Shown here piece by piece: positions 1,264 to 46,927 of a stretch of DNA of 58,591 nucleotides (the first letter of the stretch is position 1; every line of letters starts with the position of its first letter). The DNA is taken from the NCBI GenBank assembly GCA_947586625.1, contig CANPXS010000003.1:1-58591 (forward strand), in the 5' to 3' direction. This DNA comes from an uncultured Clostridia bacterium. Its GTDB lineage: Bacteria > Bacillota > Clostridia > Oscillospirales > CAG-272. The notes below the pieces were generated by a model. The model did not search any database. It saw nothing but the letters and a program-made list of their open reading frames with translations, and was not told the DNA's origin. The translations under genes were made by a program, and so were the position numbers.

Positions 1264-1296
1264 GTGGGGGAAGCTTTTCTTAAAAGTTTTCCCCAC
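1264..1296 (+). terminator. Palindrome of the terminator-like repeat family (copy 1)
   Basis: A 15-bp stem (1264-1278 against 1282-1296, two G-T wobbles) closes a CTT loop just after the pseudogene stop. It has the GTGGGGGAA...TTTTCCCCAC signature seen again at 26929, 42870 and 46579. An A/T-rich stretch follows, but there is no clean T-tract, so termination is plausible rather than certain. Confidence 0.6.
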
Positions 1297-25827: not shown

Positions 25828-26913
25828 ATGGCTGATTTTCAGATGTCGGACGGAATGAATTACGCGCCCGAGGGAAAGCCGTCGCCCGTCGTGGGACCCG
25901 GCGAATTTGAATTTGCCGCGATAGGACTCGATCACGGCCACATCTACGGCATGTGCAACGGACTGATCGAGGCCGGCGCGACGCTCAAGTATGTGTATGA
26001 CCCCGATCCGGTCAAGGTCGCCGACTTCTGCCGCCGCTATCCCGGCGTTAAGGCAGCGGCAAGCGAAGAGGAAATATTCTCCGACGACAAGGTAAAGCTC
26101 GTCGCGGGCGCCGCAGTCACGTCGGAAAGATGTGCGCTCGGACTGCGCGTCATAGACGCAGGGAAAGACTACTTCACCGACAAAGCGCCGTTCACGACTC
26201 TCGCGCAGCTTGCAGTCGCGAAAATGAAGGTCGCGCGGACGGGTCGCAAGTACATGGTATACTACGGCGAGCGTCTTCACAACGAGTCCGCGATATACGC
26301 GGGGCAGCTCATCAAAAAAGGCGCGATCGGACGCGTCGTACAGGTACTCGGACTCGGTCCGCACAGACTGAACGCGCCGTCGCGTCCCGACTGGTTCTTC
26401 AAAAAAGAGAAGTACGGCGGCATACTCTGCGACATCGGCAGCCATCAGGCGGAGCAGTTCCTCGCGTATTCGGGCGAGACGGAGGCGCACGTCGTTCATT
26501 CGCAGATCGGCAATTTCGCGCATCCGGAATATCCCGAGCTTGACGATTTCGGCGACGCCGTGATCGTCGGCGGCAGCGGTGCGACGCAGTATTTCCGCGT
26601 CGACTGGTTCACGCCGGACGGGCTTCGCACATGGGGTGACGGCAGGACGATGATACTCGGCACGGACGGTTACATCGAGCTGCGCAAGTACATAAACGTC
26701 GGCACCGACGACGGGAGCGATCAGGTGTTCCTTGTCGACAAAAAGGGCGAGCACCGCTTCTGCGCACGCGGACAGGTCGGCTTCCCGTTCTTCAGCGATC
26801 TTATCAAAGACTGCATAGACAGGACAGAAAACGCGATGACGCAGGCGCATGCGTTCCTCGCGGCGGAGCTCGCGCTCACCGCGCAGGCGAACGCCGAGGT
26901 CATAGGGAAGTGA
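25828..26913 (+). CDS. Gfo/Idh/MocA-family oxidoreductase (second of pair)
   Basis: 361 residues behind GAAAGAGG. An unusual N-terminal extension (about 30 residues with PEGKPSPVVGPGEFEF) precedes the Rossmann strand FAAIGLDHGHIYGM. The VEKP motif is replaced by TDKAPFTT, the form seen in a subset of the family. The C-terminal half carries DIGSHQAEQFLAYSG. It differs strongly from its neighbour, so the pair is not a recent duplication. Substrate unknown. A palindrome of the repeat family follows the stop. Confidence 0.82.
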   Translation: MADFQMSDGMNYAPEGKPSPVVGPGEFEFAAIGLDHGHIYGMCNGLIEAGATLKYVYDPDPVKVADFCRRYPGVKAAASEEEIFSDDKVKLVAGAAVTSERCALGLRVIDAGKDYFTDKAPFTTLAQLAVAKMKVARTGRKYMVYYGERLHNESAIYAGQLIKKGAIGRVVQVLGLGPHRLNAPSRPDWFFKKEKYGGILCDIGSHQAEQFLAYSGETEAHVVHSQIGNFAHPEYPELDDFGDAVIVGGSGATQYFRVDWFTPDGLRTWGDGRTMILGTDGYIELRKYINVGTDDGSDQVFLVDKKGEHRFCARGQVGFPFFSDLIKDCIDRTENAMTQAHAFLAAELALTAQANAEVIGK

Positions 26914-26928
26914 ATAATATAAAATTAT

Positions 26929-26960
26929 GTGGGGGAAACTTTTGAGAAAGTTTCCCCCAC
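26929..26960 (+). terminator. Palindrome of the terminator-like repeat family (copy 2)
   Basis: A perfect 14-bp stem GTGGGGGAAACTTT / AAAGTTTCCCCCAC with a TGAG loop lies 15 nt after the stop. It is followed by ACCCCTTTCAAAATTTTTT, the same 3' flank as the copies near the GH2 gene. It probably terminates the dehydrogenase operon. Confidence 0.7.
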
Positions 26961-27040
26961 ACCCCTTTCAAAATTTTTTATAAGAGTTTTGTTTGGTATA
27001 ATCGTATATATGTACGGTGATTTTTTATATGTACGTTCGC

Positions 27041-39477: not shown

Positions 39478-39515
39478 GGGAGAGAAGCCGCGACGCTTCT
39501 CTCCCATATTTTATT
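39478..39515 (+). terminator. Terminator between metA and the DUF4097 gene
   Basis: An 11-bp stem GGGAGAGAAGC/GCTTCTCTCCC with a CGCGAC loop is followed by ATATTTTATT. On the other strand it is followed by CTTTTCTTTTTC, so it can stop transcription both ways. Confidence 0.85.
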
Positions 39516-42653: not shown

Positions 42654-42675
42654 AGTGAATCCTTTCGGGGAATGT

Positions 42676-42795
42676 AATAAAAGATTTTGAAGATAAGGGG
42701 CTAATGGGAGGGGACTTTTTTTGTTTTGGAGCCCCTTTTGGTAAAAGGTGCCCCAAACCCTCTCCAAAAGCGGACCGATTAGTGATTATTTTAAG
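42676..42795 (-). repeat. Composite repeat, part A (copy 1)
   Basis: The 49-nt core 42728-42776 (GGAGCCCCTTTTGGTAAAAG... to ...AAAAGCGGACC) recurs at 46445-46493 with the same length. On the minus strand it forms GGGGCACCTTTT/AAAAGGGGC stems preceded by GGTCCGCTTTTGGAGAGG. It lies in the 263-nt gap between the GH2 and GH43 genes. Confidence 0.8.
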
Positions 42796-42841
42796 CTATC
42801 TCCGAGGATATTGTTTCCGTTTACCTGATAAAATCAAAATC

Positions 42842-42913
42842 GGTAATAAAAGTTTTTGAAGAAAGGGGTACGGGGAAAGGAACTTTTTTCAAAAAGTTCC
42901 TTTCCCTGTGAAA
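42842..42913 (-). repeat. Composite repeat, part B (copy 1): terminator-like palindrome (family copy 3)
   Basis: A 19-nt stem (42870-42888 with 42891-42909, one mismatch) lies just beyond the GH2 stop. On the minus strand it is followed by ACCCCTTTCTTCAAAAACTTTTAT, the conserved flank of the family. It probably ends the GH2 transcript. Confidence 0.8.
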
Positions 42914-42916
42914 AAC

Positions 42917-45900
42917 TTATTTATTAAATCTAATATAATACAAGTCAAAGTCGCATCCGGGGAGGAATACTGCGTTGACGTCGGCGGTGCCTACGGCGCC
43001 TGATACGGAGACTGTGACCTCGTACGGCTTATCGGACGCGGCGAAGTCGACGGCGGTCACCTCGTCGCCTATGCGTATCTCGACGGTGTCGCGCTCGTGG
43101 TGCGTTTTGCCGCATACGGTGACAGTCGACGCGCCGTCGCCGAACTCGAGCGCGGCGAAACCGACGGTGACGTTGTTGCCGATGTGCGCTATGCGGTCGC
43201 CCTCGCGCCTGTACGTGTCGCCGTAGAGAACGTCGCAGTCGGGGGCGCGCAGTATCTCATACGCGCGCGCAGGCGCGGCGAAGCGGAACCCGCCGAATAT
43301 CATCGGCTGTATGAAGTCGAAGCGAATACGGCGTAGTCCGCAGAGACGGTGCGGCAGCTTATACGACCGCGTGCTGTACGTGTACCACGGGTGATCGGCG
43401 ACAAAGTAGAACTCGCCGAGCTTTTCCTCGCCTTCGGTCACGTCGTATATCGAGAACGGCAGCGTCGAGTTGTGATAACGCATCATCGTCACGGCGACGT
43501 CGTCGGAGCCGAGAGGCCCGAAGTCAACGTTCTCGAACAGTACGGACGACGTCGACGCAAGCGAACGCACGCCGCCCTCCTTCTCGGGTAGCATAGAGTC
43601 GGAACCCGTCGCGACGATGCCGGGCACGAAGCGGTACGGGTCGCAATAGTGGGCGCCTACGCCTTCGGCAGTGAAATGTATCTCCGAATAAACGGCGGGG
43701 TAGGGTGTGCCGATGTTGCTGTACGCGCGCAGCGCAAACTCGCCGTCGGCGGTCGCGGTCACAGTCGCACCCGCGCCGTTTTCGTCAACGTCGACGGTGA
43801 CAAAATCGGCGGCGACTCCGCGCGTTATAGCGGTCCATTCGATGCTGCCGCAGTTGGCGTTTGTCGGGTACGACTTCATCGAAACGTGCACAGACGGCGC
43901 GTCCTTCGTCAACGTGCGCGTCGAGGTCGACAGCTCTATCTTGCGAAGCGGTATCTCGCCGCTTTCGGGCGACTGCTCGCATCTGTCGATGACGGTGATG
44001 CCGTCGGGGACAGAGCAGGGAAGAGACGGCACTGTGACCGACACTGTAGGCAGCGACGGCGACGAAACGGTGACGGTGACGTCGCCCGGCTCGTCTGTCG
44101 CGGCGACTATTGCCATGAGTCTGCCGGAGAACAGCCGGCGCGAGCTCGATTTGTACTGCTCGTAGTCGGTGCTGTCGCCGTTGTCGAGCCCGACGAGACG
44201 ACCTGCGCCCGTGACGGCGACGTTCATGCGGTTGCGCGCGTTGGCGACGAATGTGCCGTTTTCGTCGACGGTCGATATCGCAACAAATAAGAGATCGCGT
44301 CCGTCGGCGTTTATGCTTCCGCGCTCCGGCTCAAGTACGATCGATGTGGGATCGGAGAACGAGCGCACCTCGTCGCGCGCGACGATATTGCCGTCTTTGT
44401 CGTATGCGACGGCGGTGAGCGCGCCTGGTGCGTACGGTATCTGCCAGAATTCCGATATCTTCATGCCCGATTCATGGTCGTGGTCGAACGTGCCGACGAG
44501 CGAGCTGTTGAAATAGAGTTCGGAGCGCGACGCGTTCGAGTGAACGGTCACGTCGATCATTTCGCCCTCGTTGTAGTCCCAGCATTCGGGCGATATGCGC
44601 ACGAACGGTGTAACAGCACCGTCCGTCCACTCCGCGCGGTACGCGTAGTATGAATCCTTCGAGAATCCAGCCGTGTCGATCTGACCGAAGTAGGAGTTCT
44701 TCGTCTCATACGGCGTCGGCTCGCCGATGTAGTCAAATCCCGTCCATATGTACTGACCGGCGCAGTAGCGCGCGCGCCTGTCCTCGGTTATGTTGTACTC
44801 CGTCGATTTCGACGCCCATGACGTCGTGCAGTTGAACATAGACGAGCACTGATGGTCGTCGTGCGTTAAAAACTTGGACGAATACGGATAGTGATATATG
44901 CCGCGGCTCTGCACCGTCGACGCCGTCTCACTGCCGTAGATGCAGTATGTCGGGTATTTTTCGTGATGCGCGTCGTAGAGCGATTCGGCGTAATTGTAGC
45001 CAACGACGTCGAGCAGAAGTCCGCACTTCTGCGCGTTTTCATTGCGCATGTGGTTAGAGCCGGATGTCGTGAACGCGTTTTTGTACGGGTCGTGGACGCG
45101 GACGAGACGGCAAAGCTCCTCCGTCACCTCAATGCCGCGCGGCGACGTTGTGTCGCCTATCTCGTTGCCTATCGACCACATTATGATGCACGGGTGGTTG
45201 CGGTCGCGGCGTATCCACGAGGCGACGTCGCGCTCGTGCCACTCGCGGAAATATACGCCGTAGTCGTGCTGCGTCTTGGGGTATTCCCACATGTCGAACG
45301 ATTCGTCAATGATGAGGAATCCGAGCTCGTCGCAGAGTTCGAGCAGCTCGACGGCGGGCGGATTGTGCGACGTGCGAATCGAATTCACCCCCATCGAGGC
45401 GAGCTTTTCGAGCTTGCGCCGCAGCGCGGCTTTGTTGACGGCTGTGCCGAGAGCGCCGCAGTCGTGGTGCTCGCATACGCCGTGCAGCTTGACGTGCCTG
45501 CCGTTGAGATAAAATCCCGAATCGGCGCGGAACTCGATCTTGCGGAAACCGAAGCTGTTCTCCGCCGCGTCGATGATGCTGCCGCCGACGGTGAGTACCG
45601 TCGAGAGCGTATACATATATGTGTCGCCGATGTCCCACAGATGCGGCGACTCGACGTCCATGCCGCATTCGCAGATGTTTCCGTCTACGCTTGACTCGAC
45701 CGATGCGATCGCGTTTCCGTCGCGGTCGACGATCTTGTGCGTCAGCGTGCCGTGCTCGCACCCGCAGAGCTCCGTGCGCACGGTGACGCGCCAGCTGCCG
45801 CCGTCAAGACGCGCGTACGATATGTATACGCCGTCAGAGGCGATGCGCGTCACAGGCGCGGTTTTAAGCCATACGCAGCGGTATATGCCCGCGCCCGAGT

Positions 45901-46348: not shown

Positions 46349-46390
46349 TTACAGTCTGTCGGATAAAATAATACAGTTTATCGGTTTTGT

Positions 46391-46510
46391 AAAAGTTCTT
46401 GAAAAGAGGGTGGGTGCAGGGAGGGAGAGAAACTTATTTATTTAGGGGGCCCCTTTTTGTAAAAGGTGCCCTCCACCTCTCCAAAAGCGGACCAAATCTG
46501 TTTATCTTAA
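46391..46510 (-). repeat. Composite repeat, part A (copy 2)
   Basis: The 49-nt core 46445-46493 aligns without gaps to 42728-42776 and is followed on the plus strand by a similar TTTATCTTAAG. It sits in the 348-nt gap between the GH2 start and the small gene at 46634, which holds nothing else but the GH2 promoter and part B. Confidence 0.8.
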
Positions 46511-46549
46511 GTTCGCACCGAGAATTTTTGTTATTGTTAATTATAGAAA

Positions 46550-46625
46550 AATTGTAAAAGTTTTTGAAAGAAAGGGAGTGTGAGGGAAGGAAAACTTTTT
46601 TTCAAAAAGTTTTCCTTCCCTCACA
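46550..46625 (-). repeat. Composite repeat, part B (copy 2): terminator-like palindrome (family copy 4)
   Basis: A perfect 22-bp stem (46579-46600 with 46604-46625) and a TTC loop lie 8 nt beyond the stop of the small gene. On the minus strand ACTCCCTTTCTTTCAAAAACTTTTAC follows, as in the other copies. It is the strongest member of the family here. Confidence 0.85.
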
Positions 46626-46633
46626 GTATAAAC

Positions 46634-46927
46634 CTAAATCTCACCAACGAGTCGGCGCATCTCGTCGCGCGTATGCACGGAACGCGCGCGGCGTATGATA
46701 TCGTCCTGTTCGGAGTTGGACATCGCCGTGAAGCGGTGGAACGCGTCCGTGTCCTGCGCGAATGCCATGGCGAGTCCCTCGGGCAGCTCGGCGAATTCCT
46801 CGACGGGCGTCACGCCCTGCCACGCGGGATGGTAAGCGCCGGCGCTTATACCGGACGGCAGTCCCGACGGGTCGGGAAAGGAATACGGGTACGGACTGTT
46901 GTTATTTGTGTATGAGTTGTTTTTCAT
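46634..46927 (-). CDS. Short conserved protein of unknown function
   Basis: 97 residues from ATG 46927 with GAGG upstream; the track's start reads into the esterase gene. An Asn/Ser/Pro/Tyr-rich N-terminus precedes LPEGLAMAFAQDTDAFHRFTAMSNSEQDDIIRRARSVHTRDEMRRLVGEI. I recognise this end as similar to short clostridial proteins of the form LP.GFGMALAQN..AM..F..L....Q..II..A......EM..FV. Their role is unknown. It is the last gene before the palindrome at 46579. Confidence 0.65.
   Translation of the reverse strand: MKNNSYTNNNSPYPYSFPDPSGLPSGISAGAYHPAWQGVTPVEEFAELPEGLAMAFAQDTDAFHRFTAMSNSEQDDIIRRARSVHTRDEMRRLVGEI

What the first reader, a model, noticed from the sequence alone, without database searches (positions are those of the whole stretch)
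46579..46625. Family of terminator-like palindromes next to stop codons
Four main copies (1264-1296, 26929-26960, 42870-42909, 46579-46625) share the pattern GTGGGG(A)AA...TTTTC loop and mirror image. Each lies within about 20 nt after a stop. Three are followed in gene direction by A-C-(T)CCC-TTTC-(TT)C-AAAA-TTTT. Stems are 14-22 bp. This looks like a dispersed element that serves as terminator.
Basis: seen in the sequence. Interest (0 to 1): 0.62.

Follow-up and report, generated by a model that had tools for sequence, protein, structure and literature searches.

The report
Hairpins with mirror-image tails after genes
Directly after many stop codons in these gut bacteria sits a DNA hairpin followed by a tail that is the mirror image of one hairpin arm and changes in step with it, the pattern expected if all three strands lock into a triple helix; selection on such a structure in a living genome would be new and directly testable.

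Summary
The four palindromes exist, each 4-14 nt after a stop codon, and three belong to a genome-wide family (about 120 places in the 2.4 Mb assembly). "Family of stop-adjacent palindromes" is right; "terminator" is unproven, and in gene direction the hairpins lack the adjacent T-run of a canonical intrinsic terminator. The conserved tail (CCC-TTTC-AAAAA-C-TTTT) is not a fixed sequence. In each copy it is the mirror image of that copy's own 3' arm. Own-arm matching beats shuffled pairings in four data sets (z 7.4-14.5, 0 of 5000 shuffles each), including one copy from each of 22 genomes. Inner tracts track in length and order (TTTCT with AAAGA, TCTTT with AGAAA, TTCT with AAGA). Watson-Crick pairing cannot produce a mirror relation; an intrastrand triplex that switches its purine strand midway can. 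Between two sister species with 94-98% identical flanks, most sites carry different but again self-consistent hairpin-tail sets. The copies at 42.9 and 46.6 kb are also the ends of a ~200-nt repeat confined to these two species. Closest known kind: bacterial intrastrand triplex motifs (PIT/TM-ECO). The triplex is inferred, not measured.

The parts
46577..46627 (-). H1 hairpin, 8 nt after the stop at 46634 (gene on minus strand); arms GTGAGGGAAGGAAAACTTTTT / AAAAAGTTTTCCTTCCCTCAC
   Evidence: CM R1 70.7 bits
46551..46576 (-). mirror-image tail CCCTTTCTTTCAAAAACTTTT (putative third strand)
   Evidence: mirror of the adjacent 3' arm with one gap and one mismatch
46420..46550 (-). core repeat downstream of the tail, ending in a second degenerate arm and tail (CM match 46386-46478)
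42870..42909 (-). H1 hairpin, 7 nt after the stop at 42917 (GH2 gene, minus strand)
   Evidence: 78.4 bits
42843..42869 (-). mirror-image tail ACCCCTTTCTTCAAAAACTTTTATTAC
42714..42842 (-). core repeat (about 75% identical to that at 46420), with a second degenerate arm and tail (CM match 42674-42761)
26928..26961 (+). H1 hairpin TGTGGGGGAAACTTTTGAGAAAGTTTCCCCCACA, 14 nt after the stop at 26913
   Evidence: 58.7 bits
26962..26984 (+). mirror-image tail CCCCTTTCAAAATTTTTT; no core follows
1264..1296 (+). related hairpin without mirror tail; marginal member
   Evidence: CM only 20.1 bits, E=0.004

Best explanation
A family of dispersed elements placed directly after genes, whose conserved unit is a perfect hairpin (purine-rich 5' arm, pyrimidine-rich 3' arm) plus a 14-22 nt tail that mirrors the 3' arm. 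The tail is built to lie in the groove of the hairpin as a third strand, giving an intrastrand triple helix of about 16 triads (median). In the base half the purines are on the 5' arm. In the loop half the purines are on the 3' arm, and the tail changes from pyrimidine to purine at exactly that point, so the helix would be an alternate-strand (strand-switching) triplex. SHOWN: the family, its position, and the copy-by-copy mirror covariation across 22 genomes. STRONGLY INFERRED: Hoogsteen or reverse-Hoogsteen pairing as its cause. WEAKLY INFERRED: the pairing strand is the gene's template strand, as DNA. INFERRED: the structure works as a 3'-end boundary (stopping or anchoring polymerase, or sealing the transcript end), and is spread and rewritten by exchange between copies, so each site keeps the structure but not the sequence.
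For: Own tail vs own arm against shuffled pairings: own genome z=14.5 (N=50), sister species z=11.6 (N=39), another genus G050 z=7.4 (N=20), one copy per genome z=8.5 (N=22), 0 of 5000 shuffles each. Direct repeat, 5' arm and complement give much less or nothing. Inner tract expected vs observed: AAAAA 58, AAGAA 24, AAAGA 10, AAGA 7, AAAAAA 3, AGAAA 2, AGAA/AAAGAA/AAAAGA 1 each; the 22 exact matches with non-palindromic tracts all follow mirror order and none the direct order. At the strand switch the tail has C opposite arm C (137 of 151), and the number of C's tracks (1-1, 2-2, 3-3) in most copies. Orthologous sites: own beats cross match in 11 of 15 pairs, equal in the 4 nearly identical ones, never worse. 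Position: 92 of 137 within 27 nt after a same-strand stop. Covariance-model matches in 43 of 59 genera of the family and in another family of the order. Strand choice: at base-half A:T pairs the tail has T 592, A 51, C 17, which fits a purine-motif triplex on the template strand (A.A-T or T.A-T); at loop-half T:A pairs it has A 618, T 0, which fits a strict pyrimidine motif there.
Against: No structure was measured. 14% of aligned triads are mismatched and many tails need one gap. On the coding strand or in RNA, runs of C+ would be unfavourable near neutral pH. The comparable E. coli motif formed a triplex in vitro as single strand, but showed no in vivo footprint, and earlier work found no terminator activity (PMC4666352). 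Copies exchange sequence, so within-genome shuffles overstate independence (the one-per-genome and ortholog tests answer this in part). Tails were picked by a loose pattern fixed in advance, which narrows variation. No expression data.
Confidence: 0.6

Rival explanations
1. Ordinary intrinsic transcription terminators whose sequence became uniform by copying; the tail is just the U-tract region.
For: Stop-adjacent, stable hairpins, T-rich tract within ~6-12 nt, mostly between convergent genes (95 of 122 downstream genes convergent).
Against: Canonical terminators do not need a mirror-image, copy-specific tail of 14-22 nt. The same genome has normal A-stem-T terminators. Scans do not flag these copies in gene direction. 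Other hairpins of the genome give z=2.7 in the mirror test against 14.0. About 20% sit at gene starts.
Confidence: 0.2
2. Selfish miniature transposable element: hairpin and tail are the end recognised by a mobilising enzyme; the place after stops reflects tolerance or a target preference.
For: Near-identical copies at unrelated sites in G080. In G427 two unlike hairpin-tail units face each other about 175 nt apart at several loci, and 9 facing pairs occur in G000/G006. The core repeat is confined to two species. Alleles move between loci.
Against: No Y1 (REP/IS200-type) transposase in G000, G006, G005, G050, G080 or the three order-level genomes. Orthologous sites stay occupied while their sequence changes, which is exchange at a fixed site more than insertion and loss. 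No insertion-site duplication was established. Mobility would still need a reason for the mirror tail.
Confidence: 0.25
3. RNA-level triplex at the mRNA 3' end (U.A-U and C+.G-C), protecting the transcript from 3' exonucleases, analogous in principle to eukaryotic 3' triple helices.
For: Gene-sense RNA has the order purine arm, pyrimidine arm, pyrimidine tail; position right after stops.
Against: The loop half would need purine-motif triads, which RNA forms poorly (own knowledge). Long CCCC third strands need protonation. The substitution pattern (A tolerated at base-half A:T, T never at loop-half T:A) fits the template strand better.
Confidence: 0.15
4. Mirror covariation is an artefact of purine/pyrimidine composition and of related copies.
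For: Arms are purine-rich and tails pyrimidine-rich everywhere; copies exchange sequence.
Against: Shuffles keep composition and still give z 7.4-17; one copy per genome z=8.5; upstream-flank control z=2.2; single-position rearrangements in the inner tract track exactly.
Confidence: 0.04

Closest known systems
Bacterial intrastrand triplex motifs (PIT elements / TM-ECO / BoxC; ITxF classes I-IV; Hoyne, Maher; Holder et al. 2015, PMC4666352)
   Same: Intergenic dispersed repeats of three consecutive domains on one strand able to fold into a triplex; associated with local sequence instability. The base half here fits class III on the coding strand and class I on the template strand.
   Different: TM-ECO is one nearly fixed 37-nt sequence, G/C-rich class II, with no set distance to genes and no terminator activity. 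Here sequences differ at nearly every site with arm-tail covariation, the helix switches strands midway, stems are 15-25 bp, and copies abut stops.
Intrinsic (rho-independent) terminators
   Same: Stable hairpin a few nt after the stop; T-rich stretch downstream.
   Different: No T-run adjacent to the stem; CCCC first; mirror tail; not flagged in gene direction.
REP/BIME elements with RAYT transposases, and MITEs
   Same: Short dispersed palindromic intergenic repeats, sometimes facing pairs or tandem arrays.
   Different: No Y1 transposase found in most bearing genomes tested, the own genome included; no single consensus arm sequence; mirror tail not described for REPs (own knowledge).
Alternate-strand triple helices designed in vitro (own knowledge, not tested here)
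   Same: Third strand crossing from one purine strand to the other at an R-Y junction.
   Different: Those are synthetic; here a genome-encoded version is proposed from covariation.

Membership tests
Intrinsic terminator | hairpin followed within 0-2 nt by a T-rich tract in gene direction | tested here: not met
   none of the three tailed copies flagged on the gene strand
Intrinsic terminator | RNA 3' ends at the element | not testable with these tools
   no transcript data
Intrastrand triplex motif (PIT/TM class) | three consecutive domains on one strand: two pairing by Watson-Crick, the third related as Hoogsteen strand | tested here: met
   median 16 triads, 86% matched, copy-specific
Intrastrand triplex motif (PIT/TM class) | forms a triplex in vitro | not testable with these tools
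   needs CD/NMR/melting
TM-ECO in particular | conserved 37-nt sequence, no fixed distance to genes | tested here: not met
   arms differ between sites and between orthologs; 92 of 137 within 27 nt of a stop
REP/RAYT | genome encodes a Y1 (TnpA-REP) transposase | tested here: not met
   PF01797 absent from G000, G006, G050, G080, G427 and others; present in one bearing genome (G078) and in several without the element
MITE | precise empty/filled sites with target duplication | tested here: inconclusive
   distant congeners lack the element at sites A and B but are too diverged for exact junctions; G006 gained or G000 lost one unit at site A
Known structured RNA (Rfam 15) | match above gathering score | tested here: not met
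   0 matches in the window

The most novel reading that the evidence does not exclude
A naturally evolved alternate-strand triple helix acts as a new class of gene 3'-end boundary signal across a family of gut Clostridia, kept by selection on Hoogsteen pairing while its sequence turns over faster than the flanking genes.
Probability: 0.35. Interest if true: 0.9.

Novelty: new variant of a known kind. Interest (0 to 1): 0.74.

Why it matters
Whether intramolecular triplexes matter in living genomes is an old open question; the best studied bacterial motif gave no in vivo footprint. Compensatory mirror changes at dozens of sites are the kind of evidence that established RNA helices, applied to a third strand, and they supply matched and mismatched natural alleles ready for a decisive bench test. 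If the element also ends transcripts, it would add a mechanism of 3'-end formation; if not, it is an unusual repeat with extreme turnover.

Tried and rejected
Direct repeat of the 3' arm (fits symmetric tracts such as AAGAA, fails for AAAGA, AAGA and AGAAA). Tail pairing with the 5' arm by Watson-Crick (C.C mismatch at the junction, and broken in TCTTT/TTTCT alleles). Rfam. REP/RAYT. Integron-like attC arrays (considered because of the tandem units; no test made, no array of gene cassettes seen). Phage origin of the core: 0 matches in viral contigs. Literature searches for triplexes in bacterial terminators or for this repeat found only the PIT/TM line; closed journals are not in that library.

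Full report
OBSERVATION. The four palindromes are present where stated, each 4-14 nt after a stop codon. Stems this long do not arise in composition-matched random sequence. Three of the four share the flank described; the one at 1264-1296 does not and is a marginal member. A covariance model of hairpin plus tail (R1, 36 sequences) finds 146 matches at E<=0.001 in the own assembly, about 120 distinct places after merging opposite-strand matches by hand.

ANATOMY. In gene direction: stop codon, usually 2-27 nt, hairpin H1 (5' arm like GGGGGAGAAAAAC|TTTTT, loop of 2-4 nt, 3' arm its complement, usually perfect), a 0-5 nt linker, then a tail such as CCCTCTCTTTTC|AAGAAC and CTTTT. Perfect complementarity is kept although nearly every copy has a different arm. 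In the window the copies at 42.9 and 46.6 kb are followed by a ~110-nt core and a second, degenerate arm and tail. That ~200-nt unit is repeated in tens of places, often in tandem, and some copies carry an extra three-hairpin insert. The core is therefore narrowly distributed and probably young; the hairpin and tail are not.

THE MIRROR RULE. Comparing each tail with its own hairpin shows that it is the mirror image of the 3' arm, equally the parallel complement of the 5' arm. First test: 71 copies, local alignment score 11.8 against 8.4 for shuffled pairings, z=17.4, 0 of 20000. Direct repeat gave z=6.7; 5' arm and complement gave no signal. Repeated per data set: own genome z=14.5, sister species 11.6, genus G050 7.4, one copy from each of 22 genomes 8.5, always 0 of 5000. 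Controls: upstream flank z=2.2, other hairpins of the genome z=2.7, some of which look like degenerate members. The loop-proximal tract is the cleanest case: expected and observed agree in length and order (AAAAA 58, AAGAA 24, AAAGA 10, AAGA 7, AAAAAA 3, AGAAA 2 and three singletons; some off by one base, a handful of misses), and all 22 exact matches with asymmetric tracts follow mirror order. At the purine-to-pyrimidine switch the tail carries C opposite arm C instead of the mirror G (137 of 151), and in G050 one, two or three C's in the arm go with as many in the tail in 15 of 19 copies.

WHY A TRIPLEX. I know of no copying or Watson-Crick process that produces a mirror repeat; a third strand in the groove of the hairpin does (inference from established nucleic-acid chemistry). 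On the coding strand the base half would be the pyrimidine motif and the loop half the purine motif; on the template strand the reverse. The tolerated exceptions favour the template strand: at base-half A:T pairs A replaces T more often than the transition C does (51 against 17 of 663), as allowed in a purine motif; at loop-half T:A pairs T never appears (0 of 622), as required in a pyrimidine motif. This is suggestive only. No structure was measured.

EVOLUTION. At 17 orthologous sites of the two sister species the flanks are 94-98% identical up to a few nt before the hairpin, and downstream sequence is often collinear, yet most sites carry different arms and tails, each internally matched. 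In 15 scorable pairs own matching exceeds cross matching in 11 and equals it in 4 (Wilcoxon p=0.0017). A replaced allele often has a close relative (edit distance 0.02-0.09) at some other locus while its ortholog differs by about 0.2-0.44. So modules appear to be exchanged between sites as units. At site A (window 42.7 kb) G006 has two tandem core units where G000 has one, G005 has hairpin plus tail without core, and G001, G007 and G009 show no core and no such module in the stretch examined; at site B G006 carries the insert-bearing core and extra hairpins in the loop.

DISTRIBUTION. 43 of 59 sampled genera of the family match R1 at E<=0.01, many at or near the scoring cap, others not at all. 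In the class only one further family of the same order has many copies, with the mirror rule visible. In G080 the module is nearly invariant at 16 sites; in G427 and G214 unlike modules face each other about 175 nt apart.

FUNCTION. Placement argues for a 3'-end role: 92 of 137 copies start within 27 nt after a same-strand stop, 95 of 122 next genes are convergent, 2 of 137 lie in called genes (simple ORF caller). But 9 of 50 own-genome copies abut a gene start on the other strand within 33 nt, and canonical terminator scans do not flag the tailed copies in gene direction. A boundary role (termination, roadblock or transcript-end protection) is the best guess; a selfish end structure is the main rival. 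The known relatives, PIT/TM-ECO triplex motifs, showed no terminator activity and no in vivo footprint but were linked to local instability (PMC4666352), which agrees with the fast turnover here.

LIMITS. Draft, possibly incomplete assemblies; repeats sit at contig ends. Gene calls are my own. Scoring caps make copy numbers lower bounds. Tails were chosen with a loose preset pattern. Most own-genome loci were reached through similarity to the core repeat, so they are not a random sample. Copies within a genome are not independent.

Noticed in passing
window 42714-42842 and 46420-46550; loci L043, L044, L045, L049: A ~110-nt core (..CTCGGAGATAGCTTAAGATAANCACTAATCGGTCCGCTTTTGG..) repeated in tens of places in two sister species only, in tandem arrays of (core + 3' arm + tail)n; two versions (CGGAGATAG..AATCGGTCCG and CAGNGCGTA..ATTTAGTCCG).
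   Followed up: partly
L009, L012, L017, L043 and G006 site B (L082): Some cores carry an inserted three-hairpin segment (GGAGCATCTCCTCACTTCGTTCGGAGCTGCCACACTTTCCGC..GCGGAAAGTGTCGGAGGTTTGGAGCGTAAGCGACAAAACTCC), present or absent at the same site in the two species.
   Followed up: partly
L004:2920, L036:1516, L191:2382, L197:16984, L198:8527: A second dispersed palindrome family (TTTGACAAGGGGGACTTTCTCGCAAGAAAGTCCCCCTTGTCGAA, 20 bp stem) with conserved flanks, intergenic, unrelated to the mirror-tail family.
   Followed up: no
L289, L294, L298, L302 (G427) and L290, L295 (G214): A nearly identical ~210-bp element bounded by two unlike hairpin-tail modules facing inwards, at many loci: looks like a miniature mobile element of another family in the order.
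   Followed up: no
G006 contig starts (L103, L109, L110, L120): Many element copies lie within 1-2 kb of contig ends, so the repeats probably break the assemblies and copy numbers are underestimates.
   Followed up: no
window 39478-39505: An unrelated hairpin between two convergent genes is flagged as an intrinsic terminator in both directions, a useful contrast.
   Followed up: no
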